The position numbers were made by a program, and so were the translations under genes. From NCBI GenBank assembly GCA_903844825.1, contig CAIMVC010000043.1, forward strand, positions 1 to 47,481: a stretch of 47,481 bases of DNA, read 5' to 3'. The notes under the pieces are model-generated. The model was not told the origin of the DNA and searched no databases. It worked only from the letters and a program-made list of their open reading frames with translations. The DNA comes from an uncultured Burkholderiales bacterium. Lineage in GTDB: Bacteria; Pseudomonadota; Gammaproteobacteria; Burkholderiales; Burkholderiaceae_C. The first letter of the stretch is position 1. Every line of letters begins with the position of its first letter. Of the stretch, positions 5,568-28,935 are shown piece after piece.

Positions 5568-7133
5568 TCAGCGTTCACGGCCGATGAAAGCGCTCATTTG
5601 AGCCAGTTGCGCATCGAGTTCATCGACCGAGCCGCTGACGCCAAACACATAGTGATCCGGGCGAACCAGCGCTGCCGCTGCCTGGTGCCGAGCCATCCAG
5701 CTGGCGACCACGCCATCGGCCTCGGTCCAATCGGGCTGGGCCAGATCAATGAGCGTGAGCCCTGCCCTGCCGGCAACTGCGTTGGCATGCGCACGCAGCG
5801 CATCGACGACGCCTCCGGCCAGCACCAGACGCCAGCCGCAACCGGCGAGGCGGTCGAGCCGTTGCTTGCCGGTCGGCCGCAGGATCCAGGGTTGGGGAAA
5901 CAAGGTGCCATGCGCCGGGTGGGTCGGCGTTGCCAGGCAGGCCGAGGCATCCTCACTGTTGCCAATGGGCGGCTGCACATCCTGCCTTGGCGTGGCTTGT
6001 ACCTGCCCGCCAGCCTGGCTGAGCAGTTGCTGGTCGCGCGCCCGGGCGGCGGCCAGGTCGCGCTCACCGATCAACTGGCCAATGTGCTTGATGCGGCGTG
6101 TCAGTTCGGTCACATGCGTCTTGCGTTCGGGGGTGTAGGTGTCGAGCAAACTGTCGCTCGCCTGCTCGCGCAGCACAGCGTGAAGCTTCCAGCACAAATT
6201 GGCCACGTCGCGCAGGCCCTGGCACATGCCCTGCCCCAAAAACGGCGGCTGCTGGTGGGCGGCATCGCCCGCTAAAAACACCCTGCCCGAGCGCCAGCGC
6301 TGCGCCACCAGCGCATGAAACCGATAGCTGGCCTGGCGCCAAAGCGTGGCGTCGGCGGGCGAAATCCAGCGCGCCAGCAAGGCCCAGGTGCCCTCCGGGG
6401 TGGCCAGATGCTGGGGGTCTTCGCCTTCATTGATTGAAATCTCCCAGCGCCTGTGCCGGCCTGGCCCGATCAGATAGGAGCACGGCCGCTCGGGCTCGCA
6501 GTACTGCACGCTCACCTGCGGCAACTTGGCCAGGCCCTGATCATTGACCAGCACGTCCACCACCAGCCAGGGCTCGTCGAAACCGAGGTCCTGCAGGGGC
6601 AGGTTCAGCAAACTCCGTACGGTGCTGGAGGCGCCATCGCAAGCGATCACGTAGCGCGCATGGACTTCGGACTGAATGCCATCATCAGCGCGAAGACTCA
6701 GGGTGGCGCGTTCGTCGGACTGCGTCAGCGCGGTCAAGGTCTGACCCAGGGCCAGCGTCACGCTGCCCAGAGTGGCCACATGCGCCCTGAGCACGCGCTC
6801 CACGGGCGGCTGCGAAAAAACCACCGAGGGATGGTGGGCCAGGGGGTAAGGCGGCTTGACGGTCGACATGCACTTGATCAGCTCGCCACCGACGCCAAAA
6901 TAGTGGGAGTCGGTAAACGGCTCCATGTAGGGCGCCACCGCCTCGTCCACCCCGAGCTCCTGAAAAAGCCGCAAGATTTCGTGGTCCAGGGCGATGGCGC
7001 GAGGCTTGTCATAGACCGCGTGGAGCCGGTCGCAGACGAAGGTGGAAATCCCGCGGCGGCCCAGCAAGCCAGCGGCCACAACGCCGGCCGGGCCAAAGCC
7101 CACGATCGCCACTTCGTAGATCGGCTGCACCAT
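5568..7133 (-). CDS. FAD-dependent aromatic hydroxylase (MhpA-like, 3-(3-hydroxyphenyl)propionate hydroxylase family)
   Basis: MVQPIYEVAIVGFGPAGVVAAGLLGRRGISTFVCDR (FAD GxGxxG), VFLAGDAAHQQPPFLGQGMCQGLRDVANLCWKL. Start ATG at 7133 overlaps the stop of the upstream gene by 1 nt; the ORF track start at 7295 is upstream and unsupported. Confidence 0.88.
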   Translation of the reverse strand: MVQPIYEVAIVGFGPAGVVAAGLLGRRGISTFVCDRLHAVYDKPRAIALDHEILRLFQELGVDEAVAPYMEPFTDSHYFGVGGELIKCMSTVKPPYPLAHHPSVVFSQPPVERVLRAHVATLGSVTLALGQTLTALTQSDERATLSLRADDGIQSEVHARYVIACDGASSTVRSLLNLPLQDLGFDEPWLVVDVLVNDQGLAKLPQVSVQYCEPERPCSYLIGPGRHRRWEISINEGEDPQHLATPEGTWALLARWISPADATLWRQASYRFHALVAQRWRSGRVFLAGDAAHQQPPFLGQGMCQGLRDVANLCWKLHAVLREQASDSLLDTYTPERKTHVTELTRRIKHIGQLIGERDLAAARARDQQLLSQAGGQVQATPRQDVQPPIGNSEDASACLATPTHPAHGTLFPQPWILRPTGKQRLDRLAGCGWRLVLAGGVVDALRAHANAVAGRAGLTLIDLAQPDWTEADGVVASWMARHQAAAALVRPDHYVFGVSGSVDELDAQLAQMSAFIGRER

Positions 7134-7996
7134 CAGGCGGCCTCGTCCTCGATGAGGTTGCTGAGCACGCCAATCTGATCGATCTCGATCTCGATGGTGT
7201 CGCCATGCTTCATCCACACGGGCGGCGTGCGGGCCTGACCGACACCGGCCGGCGTGCCCATGATGATCACGTCGCCGGGCTCGAGCGTCATGCACTCGGT
7301 GACGAGCATGATGGTCTCGGCCACACCCCAGATCATGTCGCGCGTATTGGCGTCCTGCATGATCTGACCGTTCAGCCGCGACTGAATGCGCAGCTCGCTC
7401 GCCCCTGCTGGCAGCTCATCGGCAGTGACCAGGACCGGGCCAAAGCCGCCGGTGCGGTCGAAGTTCTTGCCAATGCTCCACTGCGGCGTTTTCTTTTGAT
7501 AGTCGCGCACTGACATGTCGTTAAAGCAGCTGTAGCCAAAGACCGCGTCCAGCGCGTTGTCCAGGCTGGCGTGCTTGGTGCGCTGACCAATCACCACGGC
7601 CAGCTCAGCCTCGTAGTCAAAGCGGCTGGAGACTTTGGGACGCAGCGCCTTGGCGCCGGGCGCCAGCAAAGACGATGCCGTGCGCATAAAAAACCAGGGG
7701 TACTCGGGCTTGTCGCGCCCGCCCTCTTTGGCGTGGTCAAAGTAGTTCAGGCCCAGGCAGATAATCTTGCCGGGCTCGGGCAGCAAGGGCGAGAGTTCAA
7801 GGCCGGCCAAGGGCAGCCGCGGTGCCGAGGAGGCCGCCGCCGCGCGGGCCGCAGCCATCAGGTCAACGCCCGAGCGCAGGTTGGCACGCAGGTCACTGCT
7901 GAGTTGGGGCTGAGCTTGTTGCAGGTCGATCACCTCGGCACCAAGCACCAGGCCCAGACGGTCTTGCCCGAGGTGGCGAAAAGTGGTCAAACGCAT
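7133..7996 (-). CDS. Fumarylacetoacetate hydrolase (FAH) family protein
   Basis: KIICLGLNYFDHAKEGGRDKPEYPWFFMRTASSL...RFDYEAELAVVIGQRTK...GTPAGVGQARTPPVWMKHGDTIEIEIDQIGVLSN. Confidence 0.92.
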   Translation of the reverse strand: MRLTTFRHLGQDRLGLVLGAEVIDLQQAQPQLSSDLRANLRSGVDLMAAARAAAASSAPRLPLAGLELSPLLPEPGKIICLGLNYFDHAKEGGRDKPEYPWFFMRTASSLLAPGAKALRPKVSSRFDYEAELAVVIGQRTKHASLDNALDAVFGYSCFNDMSVRDYQKKTPQWSIGKNFDRTGGFGPVLVTADELPAGASELRIQSRLNGQIMQDANTRDMIWGVAETIMLVTECMTLEPGDVIIMGTPAGVGQARTPPVWMKHGDTIEIEIDQIGVLSNLIEDEAA

Positions 7997-8090
7997 GGGG
8001 CATCCTTTAAGAATAAAAAATTAGAAAATGCTCTGGCCGCGCCGGCAGGCCCGCAGCCCTACAGTCAGCGCACCGGCAGCCACCAGCCCA

Positions 8091-9008
8091 TCAGCCGGCC
8101 GGGTCTGCGTCAACAAAGCGCACCGTGCGCTGCGCCTCCTTGAGCCGCCCGCTTGGGGGCTGCGAAATTCCCCACCGGTCCACGCGCCCTGGCGGCCAAG
8201 TCCAGTCGCCGGGTTGACCGGTGACGTAGCTATCGTCGATCTGCTCGACATCGGCGGTGTACTCGACCACCACATCGAAAGGGCCGACGAAGTAGTTAAA
8301 GACGTTGTTGCCAGGGCCATGCCGGCCCGGTCCCCATTCAATGCCGTAACCGGCATCGCGCATGCGGCCACCGCCGCGCATGACGGCGTCAATATCGGAC
8401 ATCACGAAGGCGATGTGGTTCAGCGCGTCGTTGTCGGTGATGCCCACGGCGATGCTGTGGTGGTCGCTGTTGCAGCGCATGAAGGCCATGATGCGAGTTT
8501 TGTCGGACAGCGAGAAGTCCAGCGCGGAGGCCAGAAAAGCCTGCGTCGCCTCAACGTCATGGCTATTGAGCACCGCATGCGCCAGGCGAATCGGTGCGTC
8601 GGGGCGCGGCGTGGTGTCGGTATGCTGCGCATCCCCGAAAACAAGTTGAAAAATCCGCCCGTGCGGATCAGCAACAGTCACAGCCGTTCCGCCCCCAGGC
8701 TCCTGCAACGGCCCGGGCGCACTCAAGACACGGCCACCCGCGGCCACCGCAGCGACCGCCACCAGGTCGAGCGCCTGGCGGCTGCGCGCGCGCAGAGTGA
8801 CATGACGAATTTGCGCTGCGCCAGCGCGCTGATGCAAGGCCAGCACGTGGTGATCGGCACCAGTGGCGCGCAGGTACAGCGCCTGATCCTGGCGGGCGAC
8901 CACACTTAAGCCCCAGATGCGCGTAAAAAAGTCCTCCGCCAGCACCAGGTCTGGCACATTCAGCGCCACACTGCGCAGCGCGCTGACAAGGCTGGAGGCG
9001 TGACTCAT
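8091..9008 (-). CDS. Two-domain VOC family / type I extradiol ring-cleavage dioxygenase
   Basis: Two vicinal-oxygen-chelate repeats; putative Fe(II) ligands in RLAHAVLNSHDVEAT (H), ALNHIAFVMSDID (H), FDVVVEYTADVEQID (E). ATG start chosen at 9008 (MSHASSLVSALRSVALNVPDL). Confidence 0.85.
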   Translation of the reverse strand: MSHASSLVSALRSVALNVPDLVLAEDFFTRIWGLSVVARQDQALYLRATGADHHVLALHQRAGAAQIRHVTLRARSRQALDLVAVAAVAAGGRVLSAPGPLQEPGGGTAVTVADPHGRIFQLVFGDAQHTDTTPRPDAPIRLAHAVLNSHDVEATQAFLASALDFSLSDKTRIMAFMRCNSDHHSIAVGITDNDALNHIAFVMSDIDAVMRGGGRMRDAGYGIEWGPGRHGPGNNVFNYFVGPFDVVVEYTADVEQIDDSYVTGQPGDWTWPPGRVDRWGISQPPSGRLKEAQRTVRFVDADPAG

Positions 9009-9048
9009 GCTCGGCTCCGGGTCACAGGCAGGTTGATGAAGGCGGTAC

Positions 9049-9471
9049 TCATCCCGCGACCAGGCCCGCGGCCTCCACACCCGCGATACAAATCGCTTCG
9101 TCTTCATCCCCGGTCCCGCCGCTGGCGCCGACGGCGCCCAGGATTTCACCGGCCGCGTTCTTGATCAGCACGGCACCGGTTTGAGGCAGAAATTTGCCGC
9201 CCGCTGTGGCCGCGAGTGTGGTGAAAAAATTCGGGTTGTCTTTAGCGCGTCCGGCCAGCACCCGGCTCGACGCGCCCATGCCAACAGCCGCCCAGGCCTT
9301 GCCGGTGGCAATGTCGAGGCGAAACATGCTGGCGCCGTCCTCGCGCTGAGCCGACTTCTGGTGCCCCGCGTCGTCGATCACGACCACCCCCATCGGTTTG
9401 TAGCCGGCCTTGGCCGAATGGATCAGCGCCGCAGCGATGATGGTGTTGGCTTGTTGCAGGCTCAGGCCCAT
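9049..9471 (-). CDS. GlcG/HbpS family (DUF336) heme-binding-like protein
   Basis: MGLSLQQANTIIAAALIHSAKAGYKPMGVVVIDDAGHQKSAQREDGASMFRLDIATGKAWAAVGMG; typical HbpS-like. Confidence 0.85.
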   Translation of the reverse strand: MGLSLQQANTIIAAALIHSAKAGYKPMGVVVIDDAGHQKSAQREDGASMFRLDIATGKAWAAVGMGASSRVLAGRAKDNPNFFTTLAATAGGKFLPQTGAVLIKNAAGEILGAVGASGGTGDEDEAICIAGVEAAGLVAG

Positions 9472-15196: not shown

Positions 15197-15739
15197 TTGA
15201 GTCATTCGACCGCACCCGACGACGCCCGCCCGCCGGCAAACCCCGCATCGCCCAGCCAGACCACACCTGGCTCGTCGGCATCGCCAGCCTCCGACTTGTG
15301 TGGCGTCTGGCAGCTGGTGCGCTGGGAAATAGCCTACAGCGACGACCGACCGCCAAGCCACCCTTTCGGGCCTGACGCGACCGGTTTGATTCAGTACACC
15401 ACTGACGGCGGTATGTCCGCCTGCATCGCGCGGGCGGCCCGCCCACCCCTGTCCAGCGACAGCGTGCGGCATGCGCCCGAGGCAGAGCGGCTGTCCGCCT
15501 TCGAAAGCTATTTTCAATACGCAGGCAGCTACTTCGTGCGCGAGCACGAGGGGCGCTGGCAAGTAGTGCACCAGGTCAGCCACGCGCTGAACCCCAACTT
15601 CGTGGGCACCGACCAGGTTCGAAACATGGACTTCGACCGGCTAGGGGGCCTGACGCTGTCGGCCTCTGACGCCTTGCCCGGTGCCGCTGGCGTGGTCCGC
15701 CATCACCGCCTGATCTGGCAGAAAAAGACTGCGCCATGA
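15197..15739 (+). CDS. Lipocalin-like domain protein
   Basis: LCGVWQLVRWEIAYSDDRPPSHPFGPDATGLIQYTTDGGMSACIAR; TTG start at 15197 preceded by CCAGGAG. The longer ORF from 14933 is less likely. Confidence 0.75.
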   Translation: MSHSTAPDDARPPANPASPSQTTPGSSASPASDLCGVWQLVRWEIAYSDDRPPSHPFGPDATGLIQYTTDGGMSACIARAARPPLSSDSVRHAPEAERLSAFESYFQYAGSYFVREHEGRWQVVHQVSHALNPNFVGTDQVRNMDFDRLGGLTLSASDALPGAAGVVRHHRLIWQKKTAP

Positions 15740-17433
15740 GCCTCTTTAAAAAGCATGAGGCCTTGCTCGACCGAGCGCGCACGGCCTGCCGCGAGCGCCA
15801 CTGCTGGAGCCCGTTCCCGGACATGCCCGGCAAGTACCCCAATGCCGAAGCCGCACAGGCCGCCGGGCTGCGCGCCTTTGAATCGCACCTGCCCGCGGCC
15901 GGTCAGCGCAGCCGTTTTGCCCTGGAGCAACCTGGCACTGTGGGCGTGCTGGGGGAGGAAATATCGCCCTACACCCAGCAAGCACTGAACATCGACTACC
16001 CGCAGGCCGACGTCGATGTGCTGTTCGAGGCGGCCAGCGTCGCCATGTCAGGCTGGGCGCAGGCCAGCATCGACACCCGTCTGGGCGTGCTCATGGAAGT
16101 GCTTGACGCGATCTACCGTGAGCATCTTTTTGAAGTCGCCCACGCCGTCATGCACACTGCCGGGCAAAGCTACAACATGGCCTATGCCGGTTCGGGCGTG
16201 AATGCGCTGGACCGCGGCATCGAGGCGTTGGTCTATGCCGAGCAGGCCATGCGCAGCGTCACGACCCAGGCCCACTGGCAGCGCCCCTTTGGCAAGGAGC
16301 TGATCTCGCTGGACAAGACCTATCGCCTGGTGCCACGCGGCACCGCCGTGTGCTTTACCTGCGCAAGTTTTCCGACCTGGAACGCCTGGCCCTCGATGAT
16401 GGCCAGCCTGGCCACCGGCAACGCTGTCATCGTCAAGCCGCATCCGGCCACGGTGCTGCCCATGGCCATCAGCGTGCGGGTGTTCAGGCAGGTCCTGCAA
16501 GCCGCGGGCTTCGACCCCAACCTGGTCACACTGGCGCTGGACAGCAGCGCCGAGCCCATCGGCAAGCTGCTGGTGACGCACCCGCGCACCGCCATCGTCG
16601 ACTTCACGGGCAGTGTGCAGTTTGGTCAATGGGTCGAGCGCAACGCCTACCCGGCGCTGTGTTTTACCGAAACCGCCGGCTGCAATACCGTGGTGCTGGA
16701 ATCTTCCGATGACCTGGACGCCGCCCTGCGCAGCCTGGCCACCACCTTGTGCATGTTCAGCGCCCAGATGTGCACCAGCCCGCAAAATATTTACGTGCCC
16801 CGCCAGGGCGTGCGCACGCCGGCCGGGCTGGTGTCATTTGACGAGGTCGCCAGGCGCCTGGCGAATGCAGTCGAGGCCCTGACGGCCGACCCCAAGAAGG
16901 CGGCCATGATCTTGGCGACCATTCAGTCCGCGCAGACCCTGGCGCTGCTGGACCGCCTGAGCGCTGACGGGCAAGCCCGCGGCGCCGTGTTGCTGGCGCC
17001 CAAAAGCTACCCGCACCCCGAGTTCCCGCAGGCCCGCACCAGCACCCCTTTGATGCTCAAACTGAGCACGGCAGAGCGCGCCTGGTACGCCGGTGAAAAA
17101 TTCGGCCCGATCAGTTTTGTGATTGCCTGTGACAGCGCGGACGACGCGCTGGCACAGGCCAGCGCCGACGTCAGGGAGTTTGGCGGTCTGACGGCTTTTT
17201 TGTATTCGGACGACGAAGACTTTATTGCCCGGGCCGAAACGGCTTACGCTCGCGCCGGCGCACAGTTGACGATCAACCTCACCGGGCCGATGCCATTGAA
17301 TTTTGCAGCCGCCTACAGCGACTACCACGTCACCGGGCTCAACGGCGCCGGCAACGCCAGCCTGACCAACCTGGCTTTTGTGGCCAGTCGGTTTTGCATC
17401 ACGCAGTCGCGCCGGCCGCGCCCAGTGGGCTGA
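15736..17433 (+). CDS. paaN: PaaN-like aldehyde dehydrogenase (phenylacetic acid degradation protein PaaN family)
   Basis: N-terminal LFKKHEALLDRARTACRERHCWSPFPDMPGKYPNAEAAQAAG; ALDH core FTCASFPTWNAWPSMMASLATGNAVIVKPHPATVLPMA, MCTSPQNIYVP. ATGA overlap with the upstream stop. Confidence 0.85.
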   Translation: MSLFKKHEALLDRARTACRERHCWSPFPDMPGKYPNAEAAQAAGLRAFESHLPAAGQRSRFALEQPGTVGVLGEEISPYTQQALNIDYPQADVDVLFEAASVAMSGWAQASIDTRLGVLMEVLDAIYREHLFEVAHAVMHTAGQSYNMAYAGSGVNALDRGIEALVYAEQAMRSVTTQAHWQRPFGKELISLDKTYRLVPRGTAVCFTCASFPTWNAWPSMMASLATGNAVIVKPHPATVLPMAISVRVFRQVLQAAGFDPNLVTLALDSSAEPIGKLLVTHPRTAIVDFTGSVQFGQWVERNAYPALCFTETAGCNTVVLESSDDLDAALRSLATTLCMFSAQMCTSPQNIYVPRQGVRTPAGLVSFDEVARRLANAVEALTADPKKAAMILATIQSAQTLALLDRLSADGQARGAVLLAPKSYPHPEFPQARTSTPLMLKLSTAERAWYAGEKFGPISFVIACDSADDALAQASADVREFGGLTAFLYSDDEDFIARAETAYARAGAQLTINLTGPMPLNFAAAYSDYHVTGLNGAGNASLTNLAFVASRFCITQSRRPRPVG

Positions 17434-17498
17434 TCCCGGAGCGCATGGGCCTTGCTTGAATCTCTTTGACCTTCACTTGACCAACTCAGGAGTACGCC

Positions 17499-18944
17499 AT
17501 GGGCATCAACGAAATCAAGGTATTGACGGGCGGCTTTGCCCCCGTGCAGCACGAAATGACCATCGACCTGACCGACGTCGAGGGCGAAATTCCAAAGGAC
17601 CTGACCGGCATGTACGTGCGCAACGGCCCGAACCGCCGCTTTGAAGCCGGTGGCCGCTACCACTGGTTTGACGGTGATGGCATGCTGCACGCCGTGCGCT
17701 TCGAGGGCGGTCGCGCCCAATATCAAAACCGATGGGTCATGACCGCCGGTCTGCAAGAAGAGCTGGCCGCCGGCCAGGCCCTGTGGCAAGGCATCAAGGA
17801 TCCCCCACGCAAGGACCGGCCCGATGCGCCCCTGAAAAACACCTCCAACACCGACGTGAAGTTCTACGCCGGACACCTGGTGTCCATGTGGTACCTCGGC
17901 GGCGCGGTGTACCAGGTGCGTCCTGGCGATTTGTCGACCGTCGGAAAGCTCGAGTTTGACCCGCGCATGCAAGGCCTGCCCGTGTCGGCGCACTCCAAGG
18001 TCGATGAGCGCACTGGCGAGTTCTTGTTCTTCGCCTATGGCAAGCAGAGCCCTTACATGCACTACGGCGTGATGGACAAGGCCGGCGCACTCAAGACCTT
18101 CATGCCCGTGCAACTGCCGGGCCCGCGGCTGCCCCACGACATGGCGATCACGCCCAACTACAGCATCGTGCACGACTTGCCGCTGTTTTATGACATGGAC
18201 GCTTTTGCCGCCGGCCGCCACAAGCTCAAGTTCTATCACGAGACACCCTCGCGCTTTGGCGTGATTCCCCGTCACGGCACGCCCGAGCAGATCCGCTGGT
18301 TCGAAGCCAGCCCGACCTACATGTACCACGTCTCCAACGCCTGGGAAGAAGACGACGGCCAGGGCGGTACCGAGATCGTCATGACCGGCACCCCCTTCAG
18401 GCTGCCACGCGACTGGCGCGGCCAGGTCGATGTCGAGCGTTTCCCCAAGATGCTGGCCAACCTCGAAAATGACTTCATGTTCTACGAGTGGCGCTTTAAC
18501 TTGCGCACCGGACAGACCCGAGAGCGGGTGATCGACGACATCATCAACCAAGAGTTTCCGGTCATCAACTCGTGGCAACAGGGCTACAAGACCCGCTATT
18601 CGTGGAACCTCCTGATGGGCCGCAGCGAACGTCCGGAAGAGCCCCGCTTTTGCGGCTTCGCCCGCTACGACCTGCAGCGCAACAGCTGCACGACCTACCA
18701 TGAAGGCGTCGACAAATGGTTCAGCGAAGCCCCATTCGCGCCGCGTGACAACTGGCAGGAAGAAGACGACGGCTACCTGGTCGGCTTCATGTGGGACGAC
18801 CAGCAAAAAGCCTCGTTCGTCACCATCTTCGACGCCAAGGACATCAGCCGGGGGCCGGTGGCACGCATCCGCATGCCCCAGCGCGTGCCCAACGGCTTTC
18901 ATGCCACCTGGGTCAGCGGCGAGCGTCTGGCGCGCGGCTACTAA
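17499..18944 (+). CDS. Carotenoid/stilbene cleavage oxygenase (RPE65/lignostilbene dioxygenase superfamily)
   Basis: GMYVRNGPNRRF...YHWFDGDGMLHAVRF; four candidate Fe(II) His: PVSAHSKVD, RLPHDMAIT, YMYHVSNAW, GFHATWV. Confidence 0.93.
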   Translation: MGINEIKVLTGGFAPVQHEMTIDLTDVEGEIPKDLTGMYVRNGPNRRFEAGGRYHWFDGDGMLHAVRFEGGRAQYQNRWVMTAGLQEELAAGQALWQGIKDPPRKDRPDAPLKNTSNTDVKFYAGHLVSMWYLGGAVYQVRPGDLSTVGKLEFDPRMQGLPVSAHSKVDERTGEFLFFAYGKQSPYMHYGVMDKAGALKTFMPVQLPGPRLPHDMAITPNYSIVHDLPLFYDMDAFAAGRHKLKFYHETPSRFGVIPRHGTPEQIRWFEASPTYMYHVSNAWEEDDGQGGTEIVMTGTPFRLPRDWRGQVDVERFPKMLANLENDFMFYEWRFNLRTGQTRERVIDDIINQEFPVINSWQQGYKTRYSWNLLMGRSERPEEPRFCGFARYDLQRNSCTTYHEGVDKWFSEAPFAPRDNWQEEDDGYLVGFMWDDQQKASFVTIFDAKDISRGPVARIRMPQRVPNGFHATWVSGERLARGY

Positions 18945-19058
18945 AGTAGGACGCAAGCCAGGCATGGCCCTCTTGACCCACGCATCCAGGCAAAACACAA
19001 GCCGTGGCTGCAGCACCCTGACAGGCCTCGGTTCTGACCAGCGCTCGGGTGGCAAGGC

Positions 19059-20051
19059 ATGACCGACGGCGCCGTCCCCGTGCCGAGCTGGCTGCTGCCC
19101 TGGCTGGCCGTCTGGCTGGGCCTGGCCGTGGTCTGGCTGGCAGCCTTGCCACGCCAGACAAGCCGTACCATCGACCGCGCCTACCCACTGCTGCCGCTGC
19201 TGGTGGGCGGCGCCTGCCTGGCCTTTGGCCCGGCCTGGCCGCCCACCTGGCTGGCGCTGGTCTTGAACTGGCTGCAGCTGGGCTGGTGGTTGTGGCTGAT
19301 GCTCACGGCGACCTGGCTCGTGAGCCTGCTCAAGCGCGACAGCAGCATCATGGACATCGCTTACGGCTTTTTGATGCTGGGCGCGCCCTGGTGGTTGTGG
19401 CACCAGCTCGGGCAAGATGCCTCGGCCCGCAGCTGGCTGGTGCTGGCGCTCGCCACGCTCGGCTTTGGCCGCTACGGCCTGTACATCTGCTGGCGTAATT
19501 TGCCGCATGGGGAAGACCCGCGCTATGCGCGCTGGCGCGCCCGCTTCGGCGGCCGCTGGGCCTGGTGGAGTTACTTTCAGGTTTTTTTATTGCAGGGTGT
19601 GGTGCTCTGGCTCTGGGCTGTGCCGATGGTGCTGACGCTGCTGGCGCCGGGTGCGTTGGGCGGCTTGCACATCGCCGCCACGGCGGTCTGGCTGGTCGGC
19701 CTGGTCTTTGAAGCCGGTGGCGACTGGCAGCTCACGCGCTTTAAAAAGCAGCGCCATAGCCGCGACCAGTTGCTCGAGACCGGCCTGTGGGCCTGGAGCC
19801 GGCACCCGAATTACTTTGGCCAGACCTGCATGTGGTGGGGCTATGGCCTGCTGGCCCTGGCCCATCCGCTGGGCTGGCTGGCCCTGGCACCTATGGCCTA
19901 TGTCACCTGGTTCATGAACCGTGGTTCGGCCACTTCCCTGATGGAGCGCCACATGCTGAAAACCAAACCGGGCTACGCCGACTACTGCGCCCGCGTGCCG
20001 GCCTTCTTTCCCAAGCCACCCGCACTGCAGCGCAAGGCAGACAAGTCATGA
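19059..20051 (+). CDS. DUF1295 family membrane protein (steroid 5-alpha-reductase-like fold)
   Basis: Multi-TM; DWQLTRFKKQ...LLETGLWAWSRHPNYFGQTCMWWGYGLLAL, the DUF1295 signature. Confidence 0.88.
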   Translation: MTDGAVPVPSWLLPWLAVWLGLAVVWLAALPRQTSRTIDRAYPLLPLLVGGACLAFGPAWPPTWLALVLNWLQLGWWLWLMLTATWLVSLLKRDSSIMDIAYGFLMLGAPWWLWHQLGQDASARSWLVLALATLGFGRYGLYICWRNLPHGEDPRYARWRARFGGRWAWWSYFQVFLLQGVVLWLWAVPMVLTLLAPGALGGLHIAATAVWLVGLVFEAGGDWQLTRFKKQRHSRDQLLETGLWAWSRHPNYFGQTCMWWGYGLLALAHPLGWLALAPMAYVTWFMNRGSATSLMERHMLKTKPGYADYCARVPAFFPKPPALQRKADKS

Positions 20052-21250
20052 GCCAGGCCCTCATCATTGACGCGATTCGAAGCCCACGCGGCCGGGGCAG
20101 CGACAAAGGCAGCCTGCGCCCGATCAAGCCGGTGGACCTGCTGGCCGGGCAACTGCGTGCCCTGGCTTCGCGCACCGGGCTGGACACCAGCGCGGTCGAG
20201 GACGCGATCATCGGCTGCGTTTCACAAACCGGCGAGCAAGGCAGCAACATCGCCAAGCTCGCCACCATTCGCGCCGGCTGGAGCGACGCGGTGTCGGGCC
20301 TGAGCATCAACCGCTACTGCGCCTCAGGCCTGAGCGCGGTGCAACTGGCTGCTCAGCTGGCCGTGTCTGTGGACGGTCTGGCGGTGGGCGGCGGCGTGGA
20401 GATGATGTCGCGCGTGCCCATGGCCGCCGACCAGGGCCCGCTGACGCACGACCTTGAGCTGCAGCGCGCCACCGCCCTGGTGCCGATAGGCCTGGCCGCC
20501 GATGCGGTTGCCACGCTTGAGGGCTTTAGCCGCGCCCAATGCGACGACTACGCGCTGGCCTCGCAGCAACGCGCAGCCCTGGCGCGCAGCAGCGGCTACT
20601 TTTGTTCGGTCGCCCCCGTCACCGACAGCACTGGTGTGACCCTGCTGGCTGAAGACGAAACGCCCAGGCCACAGACCACGGCCGACTCGCTGGCCCAATT
20701 GCAAAGCGCCTTCGCGGCCATGGGCGAAAAGCAGGGCTGGAACGCCCTGCTCTGCCAGCGCTACGGCCTGAGCGCCATGCACCATGTGCAGCACGCCGGC
20801 AATTCACCGGCCATGGCGGATGGTGCCGCAGCGGTGCTGGTGGCCAGCGAGCGTGCTGCCCGGCACCATGGCTTGAAGGCCAGGGCGCGCATTCTGGCCA
20901 CGGCCGACGCCTCGGTCGACCACACGATGGCGCTGACCGGCGCCGTTGACGCGACGCGCAAGGCGCTCAAGCGCGCCGGCCTGGGGGTGGCCGACATCGA
21001 CCTGTTCGAGGTCAATGAATCCTTTGCGGCACTGATGCTGCACTACATGCGCCATTTGAATGTCCGGCACGATCAGCTCAACGTCAATGGCGGCGCGATT
21101 GCGCTGGGTCACGCCATGGGCGCGACCGGCAGCATGCTCATCGGCATGGCGCTCGACGAGTTGGAGCGGCGCGAGCAGCGCCGCGCCGTGATCTCGATTT
21201 GCGGCGCCGCTGGCGTGGCCGCTGCCATGGTCATCGAAAGGCTGGTGTGA
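20048..21250 (+). CDS. Acetyl-CoA acetyltransferase / thiolase family protein
   Basis: LSINRYCASGLSAVQLAAQLAV catalytic Cys motif; NVNGGAIALGHAMGATG catalytic His motif; C-terminal ISICGAAG. ATGA overlap with upstream gene. Confidence 0.92.
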   Translation: MSQALIIDAIRSPRGRGSDKGSLRPIKPVDLLAGQLRALASRTGLDTSAVEDAIIGCVSQTGEQGSNIAKLATIRAGWSDAVSGLSINRYCASGLSAVQLAAQLAVSVDGLAVGGGVEMMSRVPMAADQGPLTHDLELQRATALVPIGLAADAVATLEGFSRAQCDDYALASQQRAALARSSGYFCSVAPVTDSTGVTLLAEDETPRPQTTADSLAQLQSAFAAMGEKQGWNALLCQRYGLSAMHHVQHAGNSPAMADGAAAVLVASERAARHHGLKARARILATADASVDHTMALTGAVDATRKALKRAGLGVADIDLFEVNESFAALMLHYMRHLNVRHDQLNVNGGAIALGHAMGATGSMLIGMALDELERREQRRAVISICGAAGVAAAMVIERLV

Positions 21251-22245
21251 GCCCTTCCACAACCGATCTCGACTTGACGCGCGACGCACTCGCCACCAGC
21301 ACGCTCAGCCATGGCCTGAAGCTGCTGGGCGACCGCTGGACGGTGCAGGTGCTGCTGGGCACCTTCATGGGCATACGCCGTTTTGACGACTGGCAGGCGC
21401 AGCTCGGCATGTCCCGCCACACCCTGGCCGAACGGCTCAAGTCGCTGATGGCGCTGGGCCTGCTCAAACCGCGCCGATACCAGGACCGCCCTCCCCGCCA
21501 GGCCTACCACGCCACCGCCAAAGCCATGGCGCTGTACCCGCAGACCCTCATGATCTGGGCCTGGGAGCGGCGCTGGGGCAGCCGCGACGTCAGCCTGCCC
21601 AGGGCCTTGCGTCACCGCCCGTGCGGACAAGTGTTCGACCCGCAGCTCGCCTGCGCGGCTTGCGGCGACGATGTGACCATGAAAGACCTGAGTTTTAGCC
21701 TCAGGCCCAACTCGGCGCTGCCCGCCGAGACCGCTGGGCCGCTGCGCTCGCCGCGCTTGTCGGCCTCGGCCGCGCCGCGCATGGGACTGGGTTTACGGCT
21801 GGACCGCTGGAGCCTGCTGATCATCACCGCCGTGGTGCTGGGCTGCCGCTACTTCGACCAGCTCTCCCATGTGCTGGGCATTGGTCCGAGCGTGCTGGCC
21901 AAGCGGCTGGCCGGCATGGTGGAGTCGGACCTGCTGCGCTGCGAGGTCGACCGCAGCGACGCGCGCCGGCGGGTCTACCGGCTCACACCCGCCAGCCGGG
22001 GCCTCTTTGGCTACATCGTCTGCGTCTCGACCTGGGCCAGCGAGCACCATTTTCATCAGCGCAGTGCGATCGAGCCGCGTCATACCTGCGGCCATGCGTT
22101 TGTGCCACGCGTGGTCTGCAGCTGCTGCCGCCAGCCGCTACAAGCCTGGGACGTGCAGCCCGAGCTGACTGGCGCCGGCAAAACGCCTGCGGCCGATACA
22201 CCCTTGAACAAGGCATCAGACAGGAAGCAGGAGGCCTTGGCATGA
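21247..22245 (+). CDS. HxlR family regulator with two tandem HxlR winged-helix domains
   Basis: Domain 1 SHGLKLLGDRWTVQVLLGTFMGIRRFDDWQAQLGMSRHTLAERLKSL; domain 2 GLRLDRWSLLIITAVVLGCRYFDQLSHVLGIGPSVLAKRLAGMVESDLL. GTG start at 21247 in a GTGA overlap. Confidence 0.85.
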   Translation: MSPSTTDLDLTRDALATSTLSHGLKLLGDRWTVQVLLGTFMGIRRFDDWQAQLGMSRHTLAERLKSLMALGLLKPRRYQDRPPRQAYHATAKAMALYPQTLMIWAWERRWGSRDVSLPRALRHRPCGQVFDPQLACAACGDDVTMKDLSFSLRPNSALPAETAGPLRSPRLSASAAPRMGLGLRLDRWSLLIITAVVLGCRYFDQLSHVLGIGPSVLAKRLAGMVESDLLRCEVDRSDARRRVYRLTPASRGLFGYIVCVSTWASEHHFHQRSAIEPRHTCGHAFVPRVVCSCCRQPLQAWDVQPELTGAGKTPAADTPLNKASDRKQEALA

Positions 22246-23126
22246 ACGCCGGCTTGCAAGTGTTTGTACAACTGAGCGTCAACGGCATCGCCGTGGGCGC
22301 TATTTACGCGCTGGTGGCCCTGGGCATTGTGCTGATCTACAAGGCCACAGAGGTCCTTAATTTTGCGCACGGCGACCTGCTGGTGGTCTCGGCTTTTTCG
22401 GCCTGGAGCCTGATCACGGTGGCCGGCCTGCCTTTTTGGGCCGCCATGCTGATCACGGTGGCCATCACCTCGCTGCTGGCCTTCGGACTCGACGCGCTGG
22501 TCATACGCCGCATTGCCGGGCAGCCGCAATTTGCCGGCGTGATGCTGACCATTGCCCTGGCCTTCATGCTGCGCGGCCTGGTCAGCATGGTCTTTGGTCC
22601 CGAGGCGCGCAACTACGCCACCCCTTGGAGCGGCCACAACACCACCATCGCCGGCATCGCCATTGGCAACCTGCAGCTCATGATCCTGGCCGTGGCGCTG
22701 GCGGTGACGGCGGCATTTTTTGTGTTTTTCCGCAGCACGCGCCTGGGCGTGGCCATGCAAGCGGCCTCGCAAAACCAGCTCGCGGCCTACCTCAACGGGA
22801 TTCGCGTCAAGCGTGTCAACTCCCTGGTCTGGGCGCTGGCGGGCGCAACGTCGGCCGTCGCTGGCGTGCTGCTGGCGCCGATCACCCTGGTGGACCTGAC
22901 GCTGTGGTTTGTCACCCTCAAGGCCCTGGCCGCGCTGGTGCTGGGCGGCTTTGGCAGCATTCCCGGGGCGATCCTGGGCGGCCTCTTGATTGGCTTGATC
23001 GAGCAGTACGCTGGCGTCTACATGCCCGATGGCTCCAAAGACATCATTGCCTACCTGGTCCTGATTGCCGTGCTCATCGTGCGGCCACGCGGCCTGTTGG
23101 GCGAAGCGCACGGCAAACGGGTCTGA
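22242..23126 (+). CDS. livH: Branched-chain amino acid-type ABC transporter permease (LivH)
   Basis: LSVNGIAVGAIYALVALGIVLIYKATEVLNFAHGDLLVV; ATGA overlap with upstream gene. Confidence 0.93.
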   Translation: MNAGLQVFVQLSVNGIAVGAIYALVALGIVLIYKATEVLNFAHGDLLVVSAFSAWSLITVAGLPFWAAMLITVAITSLLAFGLDALVIRRIAGQPQFAGVMLTIALAFMLRGLVSMVFGPEARNYATPWSGHNTTIAGIAIGNLQLMILAVALAVTAAFFVFFRSTRLGVAMQAASQNQLAAYLNGIRVKRVNSLVWALAGATSAVAGVLLAPITLVDLTLWFVTLKALAALVLGGFGSIPGAILGGLLIGLIEQYAGVYMPDGSKDIIAYLVLIAVLIVRPRGLLGEAHGKRV

Positions 23127-23139
23127 AGAAAAGCAAACC

Positions 23140-24216
23140 ATGCGATTTGACTACGCCACCCGATACCGCGACAGCTTCGCGCTGCTGCGCCACCGTGACG
23201 AACGCCTGCTCTATGGCCTGCTAATGGCTGTACTCGCTGCGCTGCCCTGGCTCCTGAGCCCGTTTTTCCTCGGTGAGCTGAGCTATGTGTTTATCTTGTG
23301 CATTGCCAGCCTGGGGCTGATGCTGCTGACCGGCTACACCGGGCAGGTCTCGTTGGGGCATGCAGCTTTTGTGGCCATTGGCGCTTACGCGCAGGCCTGG
23401 CTGTTGTCAAAAGGGGTGCCGCTGCCGCTGTCCCTGACGCTGGCGGCGCTCATCAGCGCGGCGGCCGGTCTGTTGATTGGCGTGCCGGCAATTCGCGTCT
23501 CGGGGCTGTACCTGGCCATGGTCACCATGGCTTTTGCCATCATCGTCGAGCAGGTCATTGGCCACTGGAGTTCGGTCACCGGCGGCTTTACCGGCCTGGC
23601 CGTTGAGGAGCCCTCGATCGCTGGCTTCTCACTGGGCGGGCCGCGGGCTTTTTACTACCTGTGCCTGGCGCTGCTGACGCTGGTGCTGCTAGGCTTGCTG
23701 AACCTGCTGCGCTCGGGTCTGGGCCGGGCGCTGGTGGGCGTGCGCGACTCCGAGGCTGCCGCCTACTCACTGGGCATTCACGTGCAAGGCGTCAAGACCG
23801 TGGCCTTTGGCCTGTCGGCCGGCGTGACCGGCCTGGCCGGCGCCCTGCTGGCGCATCACCTCAAGTACCTCACGCCGGACGGTTTTACGCTGATCCTGTC
23901 GCTGGAGCTGGTGCTGATGGTGGTCATCGGCGGCCTGGGCAGCCTGCGCGGTGCGCTGCTGGGCGCCGCCCTGATCAGCCTGTTGCCGACGGCCATTTCG
24001 CGGCTCAAGCCTTGGTTGCCCGACAGCCTGGCCAAACAGTTCGGCCTGGAAATCTTCATCTTTGGCCTGGTGCTGGCGATCTTTGTGCTGTTCGAGCCGG
24101 GCGGACTGAATGCCCGCTGGCTCAAGTTGCGGGCCCTGATCGAGAGCTTCCCGCTGTACCGGCGCGACACCTTCAAGCGCAACAAGCGCTACATGAAATC
24201 GGAGCGCTACAAATGA
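23140..24216 (+). CDS. livM: Branched-chain amino acid-type ABC transporter permease (LivM)
   Basis: SLGLMLLTGYTGQVSLGHAAFVAIGAYAQAWL; GGLGSLRGALLGAALISLLP. Confidence 0.93.
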   Translation: MRFDYATRYRDSFALLRHRDERLLYGLLMAVLAALPWLLSPFFLGELSYVFILCIASLGLMLLTGYTGQVSLGHAAFVAIGAYAQAWLLSKGVPLPLSLTLAALISAAAGLLIGVPAIRVSGLYLAMVTMAFAIIVEQVIGHWSSVTGGFTGLAVEEPSIAGFSLGGPRAFYYLCLALLTLVLLGLLNLLRSGLGRALVGVRDSEAAAYSLGIHVQGVKTVAFGLSAGVTGLAGALLAHHLKYLTPDGFTLILSLELVLMVVIGGLGSLRGALLGAALISLLPTAISRLKPWLPDSLAKQFGLEIFIFGLVLAIFVLFEPGGLNARWLKLRALIESFPLYRRDTFKRNKRYMKSERYK

Positions 24217-24983
24217 CCAGCCCCGACATCTTGCTCAGCGTCAGGCAGCTCAGCCTGGCTTTTGGCGGCGTGCAGGCGATTGCCGAGTTGAGCCTGGAGG
24301 TACGGCGCGGCGAGGTGCTGGCCGTGATCGGGCCCAACGGCGCCGGCAAGACCTCCATGCTCAACGCGGTCACCCGGGTTTTTGACGCCAGTGGCGGGCA
24401 GATTCTTTTCAAGGGCCAGGACCTCGCGCAAGTGCCACGCCACCGCGTCGCAGCGCTGGGCATGGCGCGCACGTTTCAAAATATCGAGTTGTTTGAGGCG
24501 GCCACCGTGCTGGAGAACCTGCTGCTCGGGCGCCATCGCTTTGGCAGTGGCGCCTGGTGGCAGCAACTGCTCAGAACACCGGCCTTGACCGCCCGCGAAG
24601 AAGCGGCCCGTGGCGAAGTCGAGGCGGTGATCGAATTTTTAGAACTCTCACCCTGGCGCAACGCCCTGATCAGCAGCCTGCCCTACGGTGTGCGCAAGGT
24701 GGTTGAACTCGGCAGGGCGCTGTGTACCCAGCCCGAGCTGCTCTTTCTCGACGAGCCGGCATCGGGTCTGAACCCGGAGGAAACGCGCGACCTGGCCTTC
24801 TGGATTGACGACATCCGCAGCGAGCTGGGCATCACCGTGGTGATGGTCGAGCACGACATGTCGCTGGTCAGCGCCGTCGCCGATCGGGTCATCTGCATGG
24901 CGCAAGGGCGGCTGCTGTCGGAAGGCACGCCGCAGCAGGTCCAGCGCGACCCCGCGGTAATCGCCGCCTACCTGGGAGCCTGA
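24213..24983 (+). CDS. livG: ABC transporter ATP-binding protein (LivG)
   Basis: Walker A GPNGAGKTSMLN; GMARTFQNIELF; LLFLDEPASGLNPEETRDL. ATGA overlap with livM. Confidence 0.93.
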   Translation: MTSPDILLSVRQLSLAFGGVQAIAELSLEVRRGEVLAVIGPNGAGKTSMLNAVTRVFDASGGQILFKGQDLAQVPRHRVAALGMARTFQNIELFEAATVLENLLLGRHRFGSGAWWQQLLRTPALTAREEAARGEVEAVIEFLELSPWRNALISSLPYGVRKVVELGRALCTQPELLFLDEPASGLNPEETRDLAFWIDDIRSELGITVVMVEHDMSLVSAVADRVICMAQGRLLSEGTPQQVQRDPAVIAAYLGA

Positions 24984-24986
24984 GGC

Positions 24987-25763
<777 letters not shown>

Positions 25764-25774
25764 GTCCCGCAGCC

Positions 25775-27646
25775 ATGCACAACACCACCGACACCACGAG
25801 CACCATGAGCCGCACGGGCGCCATCACCTTTTTGCAGCAGGACACGCCCGCCCGGGTGTTCCGGGAGCGTTGCCGCCAATGGGCAGATCAGCCGGCGCTA
25901 CGCCACAAACAGCGCGGGTTGTGGCAAAGCAGCAGTTGGCGTCAGTACTACGAGCGAGCTCGCGCCGTCGCTCTGGCCCTGGCCGACCTCGGCCTGCAGG
26001 CGGGAGACGTGGTCTGCGTGTTGGCCGAAAACCGACCCGAATGGCTGTACGTGGACCTGGGCGCGCAATGCATGGGCCTGGTCGGCAATGGCGTTTACCC
26101 GACCTCATCGCCGGATCAGGTGCAGCACATTTTGCTGGACTCCGAGGCACAGATCTTGTTTGTTGAAAACCAGGAGCAGCTCGAAAAAGCACTGGCCGTG
26201 CGGGCACAGTGCCCTCGCCTGCGACGCATCGTGGTGATGGAGCGCGAAGGCCTGCGCCACTTGTCGGACCCCCAGGTTGAATTTTTCGACGACTTCTTGG
26301 CGCACGGGCTGCATTTGGCCGGCTCGCGCTCTGACGCCTTCGAGCAAGCCATCGATGCAGGCCAGGCCAGTGACATTGCCTTTTTGGTCTACACCTCGGG
26401 CACCACCGGCACGCCCAAAGGGGCCATGATCCTGAACCGCAACGTGGTCTTTCAAATGACGCAGGCGCCGCTGTACCTGGACGTGCAGCCGGGCGACAAG
26501 TCGGTGTCGTTCCTGCCGCTGTGCCACATTGCCGAGCGCATGGCCTCGGTCTTTAACCCTCTGGCCGTCGGGCTGATCGTGCATTTTCCCGAAAGTTCGG
26601 GCACTGTTTTCAACGACATGCGTGAAGTCGCTCCCCACGTGGTCTTTGCACCGCCACGTTTTTGGGAAAAGCTGTACTCGCAGATCGACCTCTTCATGCG
26701 CGATGCTGTCGCCCCGGCCCGCTGGATTTACCGGCAGGCGCAACAGCGCGGAGCCGCCGATGTGCAGGCGCGGCTGGCGGGACAGCGCAGCAGCGGGCGG
26801 TCCTTGCGCACTGGCTTGCTGCAGTGGCTGGCGTTTCGCAATATTCGCATTTTTCTGGGCCTGCAAAACGTCAAGAGCGCACTGACCGGCGCGGCCCCCG
26901 TTCCACCCGAGCTGATTCGCTGGTACCTGGGCGCCGGCATCGAGTTGCGTGAGGCCTTCGGCATGACCGAGACCTGCGGCTTTTGCACCGCCACCCCCAA
27001 GGGGCGCATTCGCCTCGGCTGGGCCGGCACGCCCGCTCAGGGCACGTCGATCCGCATTGGCGAGCAGGACGAAATTCTGGTGCGCGGCCCCAACGTCTTC
27101 GGCGGTTACTGGAAGAACCCGGGCAAAACGGCGGAGACGCTGGACGCCGAGGGCTGGTTGCACACCGGCGACTGCGGCGAGATCGACGCCGATGGCTACC
27201 TGGCCATTCGGGACCGGATCAAGGACATCCTGATCACCTCGGGCGGCAAAAACATCACGCCCAGCCACATCGAAAGCCTGCTCAAATTCAGCCCCTACAT
27301 CACTGACGCCGTGGTCATCGGCGACGGCCGCCACTACCTGACCTGCCTGGTCATGATCGACCAGGAGCACGTGGCCCGTCACGCCCAGGAGCAGCAGGTG
27401 CCGTACACCGACTTCGCCAGCCTGACCCGGGCACCGGAGATCCGGGCGCTGCTGCACAAAGAAATAGAGCAGGTCAACAGCCAGCTGGCGCGGGTCGAGC
27501 AGATCAAGAGCTTTCACCTGATCGCCGAGCTGCTGACGGCCGAAGACGAGGAGTTGACGCCGACCATGAAGCTCAAGAGAAAAGTCATCGCCAGCAAGTA
27601 CGCGGCGGTGATTGACAGCCTGTATGCCAGCACGGGAAGCGCCTGA
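25775..27646 (+). CDS. Long-chain acyl-CoA synthetase / AMP-binding protein
   Basis: AFLVYTSGTTGTPKGAMILNRN; EAFGMTETCGF; GWLHTGDCGEIDADGYLAIRDRIKDILITSGGKNITP. Confidence 0.92.
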   Translation: MHNTTDTTSTMSRTGAITFLQQDTPARVFRERCRQWADQPALRHKQRGLWQSSSWRQYYERARAVALALADLGLQAGDVVCVLAENRPEWLYVDLGAQCMGLVGNGVYPTSSPDQVQHILLDSEAQILFVENQEQLEKALAVRAQCPRLRRIVVMEREGLRHLSDPQVEFFDDFLAHGLHLAGSRSDAFEQAIDAGQASDIAFLVYTSGTTGTPKGAMILNRNVVFQMTQAPLYLDVQPGDKSVSFLPLCHIAERMASVFNPLAVGLIVHFPESSGTVFNDMREVAPHVVFAPPRFWEKLYSQIDLFMRDAVAPARWIYRQAQQRGAADVQARLAGQRSSGRSLRTGLLQWLAFRNIRIFLGLQNVKSALTGAAPVPPELIRWYLGAGIELREAFGMTETCGFCTATPKGRIRLGWAGTPAQGTSIRIGEQDEILVRGPNVFGGYWKNPGKTAETLDAEGWLHTGDCGEIDADGYLAIRDRIKDILITSGGKNITPSHIESLLKFSPYITDAVVIGDGRHYLTCLVMIDQEHVARHAQEQQVPYTDFASLTRAPEIRALLHKEIEQVNSQLARVEQIKSFHLIAELLTAEDEELTPTMKLKRKVIASKYAAVIDSLYASTGSA

Positions 27647-27736
27647 GCTGGCCGTTCATTCGGGCCTTGCGGTGATCACGGTAACGTGATGCCGCAAAGC
27701 CTTGGATAAGTTGTGTTTGATAAAAAAGGAGACTGT

Positions 27737-28903
27737 ATGAAACTCAATCGAAGAAGCCTGATCGTTGCAGCTGCAGCGTTCACTGTCGCCACCACGCAGG
27801 CCGCCGGGGTCAGTGACACCGAAATCGTGATCGGCAGCCACCTCGACCTGTCAGGGCCCACCGCGGCCGGCATGCCCATGCTGCGCAACGCCATGCAAAT
27901 GCGCATTGACGAAGCCAACGTGGCCGGCATCAATGGCCGCAAGCTGCGACTGATCGTCGAGGACAACGGCAGCCAGCCGCAACTGGCCGTGCGCGCCGCC
28001 CAAAAGCTGATCAAGAGCGACGGTGTGTTTGCCATCATCAACGCCTTTGGGTCGGGCCCGAACGCTGCCACCGTCAAGGCGGCCACCGATGCCGGCGTGG
28101 TGGTCTTCGCGCCCTGGGCTGCCTCGTCCATCATCCAGAAAGTCTCGGGCAACAGTCCCTTGCTTTTCACCACAGTGCAAAACTACGACGCCACCACGGC
28201 CACTGGCCTGAGCTGGGCGATCAAGAACTGGAAGTCGCAAAAGATCGGCGTGATCTACCAGGAAGGCCCCTTCGGTGACCTGATCCGCGCCGGCGTCAAT
28301 TCGGCCCTCAAGTCGGCCAACCTGACCGTGGCGGCCGAGGCCGCCTACAAGGTCGGCGATATCGACTTTTCATCCCAGGTGGCCAAGATGAAAGCTGCCA
28401 ACGTCGACCTGATTCTGGCCGGCACCGTGGTCCGTGAGACGGTCGGCGTGATGGCCGAGGTCAAGAAACTGGGCTGGAATGAGGTCAAGGTGCTCACCGC
28501 CCTGCCAGGGCGCAGCAGCATCGTCGCGCGGCTAGGCAAGGACACGGTCGAAGGCCTCTACGGCCTGGGCGGCTGGAACCTCTACGAGCCAGACACCAAG
28601 GTGGCCGAAGCCCAAAAATTCTTCACGGCCTACAAGCAAAAGTTTGGCGCTGACGCGGACGAAAACGCCGCCAACGCCTACTCCTACACCAGCTGGTTCA
28701 TCGCCGGCTTGCAGGCCGCCGGTCGCAACCTCACGGCAGACGCCTTCGCCAAGGCCATGCAAGGCGTCAGCCACCAGGACTTCACCACCTACACGCGCCA
28801 GACCTTCGCCGGCAACCACGTCACGCCGGAGCTGGTGTCCGTCGACCGGGTGCAGGGCGGCAAGTGGGTGCAAATCGCGGCGCCAACGGGGGCGACGAAG
28901 TAA
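27737..28903 (+). CDS. Branched-chain amino acid-type ABC transporter substrate-binding protein (Peripla_BP_6)
   Basis: Signal peptide; VSDTEIVIGSHLDLSGPTAAGMPMLRNAMQMRIDEANVAGINGRKLRLIVEDNGSQPQLAVRAAQKLI. Confidence 0.92.
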   Translation: MKLNRRSLIVAAAAFTVATTQAAGVSDTEIVIGSHLDLSGPTAAGMPMLRNAMQMRIDEANVAGINGRKLRLIVEDNGSQPQLAVRAAQKLIKSDGVFAIINAFGSGPNAATVKAATDAGVVVFAPWAASSIIQKVSGNSPLLFTTVQNYDATTATGLSWAIKNWKSQKIGVIYQEGPFGDLIRAGVNSALKSANLTVAAEAAYKVGDIDFSSQVAKMKAANVDLILAGTVVRETVGVMAEVKKLGWNEVKVLTALPGRSSIVARLGKDTVEGLYGLGGWNLYEPDTKVAEAQKFFTAYKQKFGADADENAANAYSYTSWFIAGLQAAGRNLTADAFAKAMQGVSHQDFTTYTRQTFAGNHVTPELVSVDRVQGGKWVQIAAPTGATK

Positions 28904-28905
28904 AT

Positions 28906-28935
28906 AAAAAAAGCCACCCGAAGGTGGCTTTTTTT
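28906..28935. terminator. Bidirectional Rho-independent terminator between convergent SBP genes
   Basis: AAAAAAAGCCACC-CGAA-GGTGGCTTTTTTT: perfect 13-bp stem with tetraloop. Confidence 0.95.

What the first reader, a model, noticed from the sequence alone, without database searches (positions are those of the whole stretch)
15197..28903. Candidate undescribed uptake-and-degradation island built around a carotenoid/stilbene cleavage oxygenase
Seen: a same-strand array, mostly with ATGA/GTGA or near-zero junctions, in the order lipocalin-like, PaaN-like ALDH, carotenoid-cleavage-family oxygenase (four iron His retained), DUF1295 reductase-fold membrane protein, thiolase, tandem HxlR regulator, LivH-M-G-F, long-chain acyl-CoA synthetase, periplasmic SBP. 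Known: RPE65/lignostilbene-type oxygenases split alkenes to aldehydes or ketones; ALDHs oxidise aldehydes; AMP-binding ligases make CoA thioesters; thiolases cleave beta-ketoacyl-CoA; steroid-5-alpha-reductase-fold proteins reduce conjugated enones; lipocalins bind lipophilic ligands. Inference: the order encodes import, oxidative C=C cleavage, aldehyde oxidation, CoA activation and thiolysis of a lipophilic phenylpropanoid, stilbenoid, apocarotenoid or terpenoid. No dedicated acyl-CoA dehydrogenase or enoyl-CoA hydratase is in the window, so beta-oxidation would borrow enzymes from elsewhere.
Basis: partly seen in the sequence, partly recalled or inferred. Interest (0 to 1): 0.75.

Follow-up and report, generated by a model that had tools for sequence, protein, structure and literature searches.

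The report
Bacterial multi-oxygenase lipid-degradation gene island
A block of twelve genes in an aquatic-type bacterium looks like a pathway for importing and breaking down an oily, carotenoid-like molecule; the same block, often with several copies of the key cutting enzyme, is kept together in many unrelated bacteria and seems to be undescribed, although its exact food is not known.

Summary
The array is real and where stated: Lipocalin_5, PaaN-type aldehyde dehydrogenase, RPE65-family carotenoid-cleavage oxygenase (CCO), DUF1295, thiolase, tandem HxlR, LivHMGF, acyl-CoA synthetase and binding protein, on one strand. It is conserved: Comamonadaceae of many genera and Rhodobacter/Pararhodobacter keep most of the order, and a smaller core (CCO, CoA ligase, two thiolases) recurs in Actinomycetota, Chloroflexota and Myxococcota, but near none of 17 control CCOs of other clades.

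In relatives the array also holds genes that this genome keeps on a second contig (C103): two more CCOs, CoA ligase, hydrolase, TctC-type binding protein, FabK/NMO-like flavoprotein and SCPx-type thiolase; C103 also has an acyl-CoA dehydrogenase. One relative has four CCOs in one array.

The stilbene reading is not supported: island CCOs lack the Tyr-101/Lys-134 pair of lignostilbene dioxygenases, and four paralogues tested all match plant carotenoid 9,10-dioxygenase (CCD1) best. Nine of 17 relatives lack a phytoene desaturase, so turnover of own carotenoids is unlikely. Best reading: uptake and catabolism of an exogenous polyene isoprenoid (carotenoid or apocarotenoid). The substrate is inferred, not shown. 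No published description was found in the open-licence library.

The parts
15197..15739 (+). Lipocalin_5 (PF13924) gene, probable TTG start
   Evidence: Pfam 2.2e-30; next to PaaN or CCO in Comamonadaceae, Rhodobacterales and Nitriliruptoraceae
15736..17433 (+). PaaN_2-type aldehyde dehydrogenase
   Evidence: TIGR02288 602 bits, over cut-off; only over-cut-off copy in the genome
17499..18944 (+). Carotenoid-cleavage oxygenase (CCO1, RPE65 family)
   Evidence: PF03055 2.9e-119; four iron His; best PDB match CCD1
19059..20051 (+). DUF1295, steroid-5-alpha-reductase-like membrane protein
   Evidence: PF06966 9.6e-48; linked in L053, L061, L056, L074, G143
20048..21250 (+). Thiolase (PRK08242-like), Cys/His/Cys motifs present in the sequence
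   Evidence: NF006090 485 bits, below its 514 cut-off; TIGR01930 332 bits, over its cut-off
21247..22245 (+). Regulator with two HxlR domains in one protein
   Evidence: PF01638, two stretches
22242..23126 (+). LivH-type permease
   Evidence: PF02653
23140..24216 (+). LivM-type permease
   Evidence: gene call; orthologues in relatives
24213..24983 (+). LivG-type ATPase
   Evidence: NF008449 250 bits, below its cut-off
24987..25763 (+). LivF-type ATPase
   Evidence: gene call; orthologues 69-87% in relatives
25775..27646 (+). Long-chain-type acyl-CoA synthetase (AMP-binding)
   Evidence: PF00501, PF23562
27737..28903 (+). Periplasmic substrate-binding protein (Peripla_BP_6)
   Evidence: PF13458 1.9e-66
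28906..28935 (.). Terminator-like stem after the binding protein
   Evidence: consensus match only

Best explanation
A catabolic island for an exogenous lipophilic polyene, most likely a carotenoid breakdown product (apocarotenoid) or related isoprenoid. Proposed steps, all inferred from family: the Liv-type ABC transporter and its binding protein (in relatives also a TctC-type binding protein) import an acid or short apocarotenoid; one or more CCOs cut conjugated C=C bonds to aldehydes or ketones, several paralogues allowing cuts at different bonds; PaaN oxidises aldehydes to acids; the AMP-binding ligases make CoA thioesters; DUF1295 and the FabK/NMO-like flavoprotein reduce conjugated double bonds; an acyl-CoA dehydrogenase and two thiolases, one of SCPx type (a family that includes branched-chain 3-ketothiolases), complete a methyl-branched beta-oxidation. 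HxlR (and IclR on C103) regulate. Shown here: gene content, conserved linkage, residue and clade placement of the CCOs. Not shown: substrate, activities, co-transcription.
For: Conserved array in many genera, two classes of Pseudomonadota and, as a core, several phyla. Core thiolases and ligase near 23, 14 and 22 of 47 island-clade CCOs outside the Comamonadaceae, near 0 of 17 control CCOs. Partner genes, including acyl-CoA dehydrogenase, on C103 of the same genome and fused to the array in G143 and G066. CCO1, CCO2, CCO3 and the fourth paralogue of G143 all match plant carotenoid 9,10-dioxygenase best among solved proteins (250, 256, 222 and 213 bits against 162, 188, 148 and 144 for LSD-I). 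Island CCOs form one clade with CCD1/VP14 apart from LSD and 13,14-cleaving groups. No Tyr-101/Lys-134 pair. Nine of 17 relatives lack CrtI over cut-off, which points to an outside substrate.
Against: No substrate or activity data. About ten CCO1-like genes at 70-72% identity have no island neighbours. The sister relation to CCD1/VP14 rests on a quick, midpoint-rooted tree with partial, long-branched plant rows. TM-scores do not separate CCD1 from LSDs. A Sphingopyxis plasmid relative includes a Rieske oxygenase subunit, which is open to an aromatic reading.
Confidence: 0.5

Rival explanations
1. A lignin-type or phenylpropanoid pathway: the CCO cleaves a stilbene, isoeugenol or another aryl alkene to an aromatic aldehyde, PaaN oxidises it, and ligase and thiolases process the side chain.
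For: Bacterial CCO-family enzymes can cleave isoeugenol and 4-vinylguaiacol (PMC6700365). PaaN is named for an aromatic pathway. A Rieske oxygenase subunit sits in a Sphingopyxis relative. A separate MhpA-like aromatic gene group lies elsewhere in the window.
Against: Tyr-101/Lys-134 absent in all island CCOs; all below the LSD model cut-offs; outside the LSD clade; LSD-clade neighbourhoods lack the module. The isoeugenol (Cso2) group itself was not placed in the tree.
Confidence: 0.2
2. Catabolism of another lipophilic alkene, such as an acyclic terpenoid, an unsaturated branched fatty acid, an abscisic-acid-like compound or a polyketide, with the CCO recruited for one cleavage.
For: The SCPx-type thiolase, CoA ligases and Liv-type transporter are generic; substrate residues for this CCO clade are unknown.
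Against: Several CCO paralogues per island fit a long conjugated chain better than a single double bond.
Confidence: 0.2
3. Turnover of the host's own carotenoids rather than growth on an outside substrate.
For: The genome has a CrtI/CrtB pair on contig C97, and eight of 17 relatives have CrtI over the cut-off.
Against: Nine of 17 relatives, most of them 98-100% complete, have none; the island is patchy within the genus; importer genes travel with it; parts occur on plasmids.
Confidence: 0.06

Closest known systems
Plant carotenoid cleavage dioxygenase 1 (CCD1, Osmanthus fragrans; PDB 7vud, 9m3e, 9m6z)
   Same: Best solved relative by sequence and fold of the window CCO (31% identity in the structural alignment); same iron ligands; no LSD Tyr/Lys pair
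   Different: A eukaryotic single-gene enzyme; the island CCOs form their own clade with an F-[ILV]-Y signature where the plant rows read F-gap-S, and sit in catabolic operons
Lignostilbene dioxygenases (LSD-I, LSD4, NOV1; PMC8191317)
   Same: Same fold and iron ligands; bacterial; used in catabolism
   Different: Lack of Tyr-101 and Lys-134 in island CCOs, separate clade, different neighbours
8'-apo-carotenoid 13,14-cleaving dioxygenase (NF052295)
   Same: Best NCBIfam model for CCO1 and CCO3
   Different: 250 and 226 bits against a cut-off of 675; separate clade in the tree
Isoeugenol/4-vinylguaiacol-cleaving CCOs (Cso2, HsCCO, RbCCO; PMC6700365)
   Same: Bacterial CCO-family enzymes, one from a Rhodobacteraceae
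   Different: Tested on phenolic propenes; their position relative to the island clade was not tested here

Membership tests
RPE65 / carotenoid cleavage oxygenase superfamily | Full-length RPE65 domain with four His iron ligands | tested here: met
   PF03055 2.9e-119 over residues 13-473; H165, H213, H277, H468
Lignostilbene-alpha,beta-dioxygenase (LSD) | Tyr-101 and Lys-134 that bind the 4-hydroxyl | tested here: not met
   Ile and Tyr (MAFFT) or Ile and Trp (phmmer) at these positions in CCO1; F-Y-K in curated LSDs (PMC8191317)
Lignostilbene-alpha,beta-dioxygenase (LSD) | NCBIfam cut-off and clade membership | tested here: not met
   212 bits against 800; outside the LSD clade
8'-apo-carotenoid 13,14-cleaving dioxygenase | NCBIfam cut-off and clade membership | tested here: not met
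   250 bits against 675; separate clade
CCD1-type carotenoid 9,10-dioxygenase | Nearest relationship to CCD1 | tested here: inconclusive
   Best sequence and fold match, but the tree joins two partial plant rows to the whole island clade
CCD1-type carotenoid 9,10-dioxygenase | Cleavage of carotenoids at 9,10 | not testable with these tools
   Needs an enzyme assay
Isoeugenol monooxygenase / Cso2 group | Clade membership and activity on phenolic propenes | not tested
PaaN_2 aldehyde dehydrogenase (TIGR02288) | Score over the curated cut-off | tested here: met
   602 against 578.75 bits; the name does not show function in phenylacetate degradation
SCPx-type thiolase PRK06289 (partner on C103) | Score over the curated cut-off | tested here: met
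   590 against 375 bits; sole over-cut-off copy in the genome

The most novel reading that the evidence does not exclude
A previously undescribed, horizontally spread bacterial pathway for complete degradation of carotenoid-derived polyenes, in which several CCO paralogues of one operon cut a substrate at successive double bonds and feed a dedicated branched-chain beta-oxidation; it would be a route by which carotenoid carbon is returned to central metabolism.
Probability: 0.35. Interest if true: 0.82.

Novelty: new variant of a known kind. Interest (0 to 1): 0.6.

Why it matters
Carotenoids are abundant pigments, yet a bacterial operon for their full catabolism was not found in the open literature searched here. 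The island gives a compact, recurrent gene set, a CCO clade without a characterised member among the references used, and named isolates in which the hypothesis can be tested directly. It also warns against annotating these CCOs as lignostilbene dioxygenases.

Tried and rejected
Stilbene or lignostilbene reading: rejected as the leading explanation by residue, clade and neighbourhood tests. Own-carotenoid turnover: disfavoured because nine of 17 relatives lack CrtI over the cut-off. Structural match as a substrate test: not discriminating, TM 0.87 for CCD1 against 0.88 for LsdA. Literature searches for a carotenoid-catabolic or CCO/Liv/thiolase cluster found no description; the library holds open-licence papers only. 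Promoter scan: one weak match, on the other strand, uninformative.

Full report
OBSERVATION. The window is contig C43 (47,481 bp) of a 4.66-Mb, 464-contig draft genome. Its nearest island relatives are Comamonadaceae, many of them metagenome-assembled genomes. Seven of eleven junctions overlap by 4 nt or lie within 3-11 nt, and LivH-LivM is 13 nt. The gaps on both sides of the CCO (65 and 114 nt) and before the binding protein (90 nt) are wider. A terminator-like stem follows (28906-28935). These data fit an operon but do not prove one.

CONSERVATION. Close orthologues of the CCO (82-88% identity) occur in about a sixth of sampled genomes of the same genus and in several other genera of the family. 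Gene-by-gene comparison shows LIPO-PaaN-CCO at the head of the array in Variovorax sp. E3 (L055), a Polaromonas MAG (L061), a Rhodoferax MAG (L057), G013, G143, G193, G209 and others, with DUF1295, thiolase and HxlR downstream in L053 and L061 and the Liv genes following in L061 and G143. Rhodobacter sp. NTK016B (L076) and Pararhodobacter (L079-L081) carry CCO-LIPO-PaaN, the NMO-like gene, thiolase, HxlR and LivHMGF (plus the synthetase in L079 and L081) at about 50-77% identity. Nitriliruptoraceae (L097, L099, L100) link a divergent Liv system, synthetase, CCO and LIPO, with PaaN and SCPx thiolase in the last two. A smaller core of CCO with two thiolases, and in many cases a CoA ligase, is found in Chloroflexota, Acidimicrobiia, Myxococcota and other Actinomycetota.

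CONTROL. Around 17 loci of other CCO clades (lignostilbene, 13,14-cleaving and a third group), none has the SCPx thiolase, the thiolase or the CoA ligase within the roughly 20 kb read. In 47 island-clade loci outside the Comamonadaceae the counts are 23, 14 and 22. These loci are not independent samples, so no p-value is given, but the contrast is clear. A limit on the claim: about ten CCO1-like genes at 70-72% identity in Comamonadaceae and other Burkholderiales have no island genes nearby.

THE OTHER HALF. In most relatives the CCO is followed by a CoA ligase, an alpha/beta hydrolase, a TctC-type binding protein, a FabK/NMO-like flavoprotein and often an SCPx thiolase. The window lacks these, but contig C103 of the same genome carries IclR (reverse), CCO2, ligase, hydrolase, TctC, NMO-like, CCO3, SCPx thiolase and acyl-CoA dehydrogenase. 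In G143 and G066 both halves lie in one array. G143 has four CCOs in it; G247 has four CCO matches on one contig and a fifth on another. The window is therefore about half of a two-part system. Whether C43 and C103 adjoin in the chromosome is unknown. Cupriavidus necator C39 plasmid p1 has IclR-CCO2-ligase-CCO3-SCPx followed by an enoyl-CoA hydratase; a Sphingopyxis plasmid has a related set and C. necator NH9 another. Parts of the system are thus plasmid-borne.

WHAT THE OXYGENASE IS. The four iron His and two conserved Glu are present. The LSD substrate residues Phe-59, Tyr-101, Lys-134 (PMC8191317) read F-Y-K in the curated LSDs and LSD-I, and F-[ILV]-Y in nearly all island CCOs. No island CCO has the Lys, and the exceptions (Y at the first position in CCO2 types; W, S or F at the third) do not restore the pair. 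One sampled relative, L177_ref, reads F-Y-Y. The two alignment methods differ by one residue at the Lys column (Trp-131 or Tyr-132), neither being Lys. By sequence the best solved relative of CCO1, CCO2, CCO3 and the fourth paralogue of G143 is plant CCD1. The AlphaFold2 model (pLDDT 90.1) also matches CCD1 first, although TM-scores do not separate CCD1 from LSDs. A maximum-likelihood tree groups the 110 island-type CCOs (SH-aLRT 99) and sets them with CCD1/VP14 apart from the LSD and 13,14 groups (98). It was a quick search, midpoint-rooted, and the plant rows are partial, so the sister relation is a lead rather than a proof.

MECHANISM. The most economical reading is uptake of a lipophilic polyene acid or aldehyde, oxidative C=C cleavage by one to several CCOs, aldehyde oxidation (PaaN), CoA activation (two ligases), reduction of conjugated bonds (DUF1295, NMO-like), and thiolysis with one SCPx-type thiolase, a family that includes branched-chain thiolases (established knowledge). 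A methyl-branched isoprenoid polyene fits all of these. The substrate remains inferred. Own-carotenoid turnover is unlikely, since nine of 17 relatives with island CCOs lack a CrtI over the cut-off, although this genome has CrtI/CrtB.

NOVELTY. Nine literature searches aimed at such a cluster found no description of it in the open-licence library; a tenth was for LSD residues. All parts belong to known families; the combination, the several CCOs per operon and the CCO clade appear undescribed. I rate it a new variant of a known kind (substrate-specific catabolic island), interest 0.6, rising if the carotenoid substrate is confirmed.

Noticed in passing
window 4449-9471 (-): A separate aromatic-type gene group on the other strand: TctC binding protein, MhpA-like 3-(3-hydroxyphenyl)propionate hydroxylase (NF004829 over cut-off), FAH-family hydrolase, glyoxalase/dioxygenase-superfamily protein and HbpS-like protein.
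   Followed up: partly
G000 contig C97 (L224, L242): CrtI and CrtB genes side by side, with an MFS gene that looks like a PucC/LhaA-type protein by eye, so the host may be an anoxygenic phototroph that makes carotenoids.
   Followed up: partly
L065-L073, L131: A subgroup of CCO1 relatives (70-72% identity) in Burkholderiales stands without any island gene; in several a phosphotransferase-like gene lies divergently upstream, as also near the island of G143.
   Followed up: partly
window 21247-22245 and relatives: The island regulator is a fusion of two HxlR domains; a Pseudomonas relative (L095) has a single-domain HxlR protein of 152 aa next to its CCO.
   Followed up: no
G143 contig C4, 24547-25056 (L134/L135): A short tandem repeat array (GRAGRFGAAVRAGLCMKDAPRLSGFTSCKPAEPPTG units when translated) sits between LivG and LivF of the relative's island.
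   Followed up: no
L207 (G438): An LSD-type CCO (F-Y-K) sits beside FAH, MhpA-like and glyoxalase genes resembling the window's group at 5568-9008, a lead for an aromatic pathway there.
   Followed up: no
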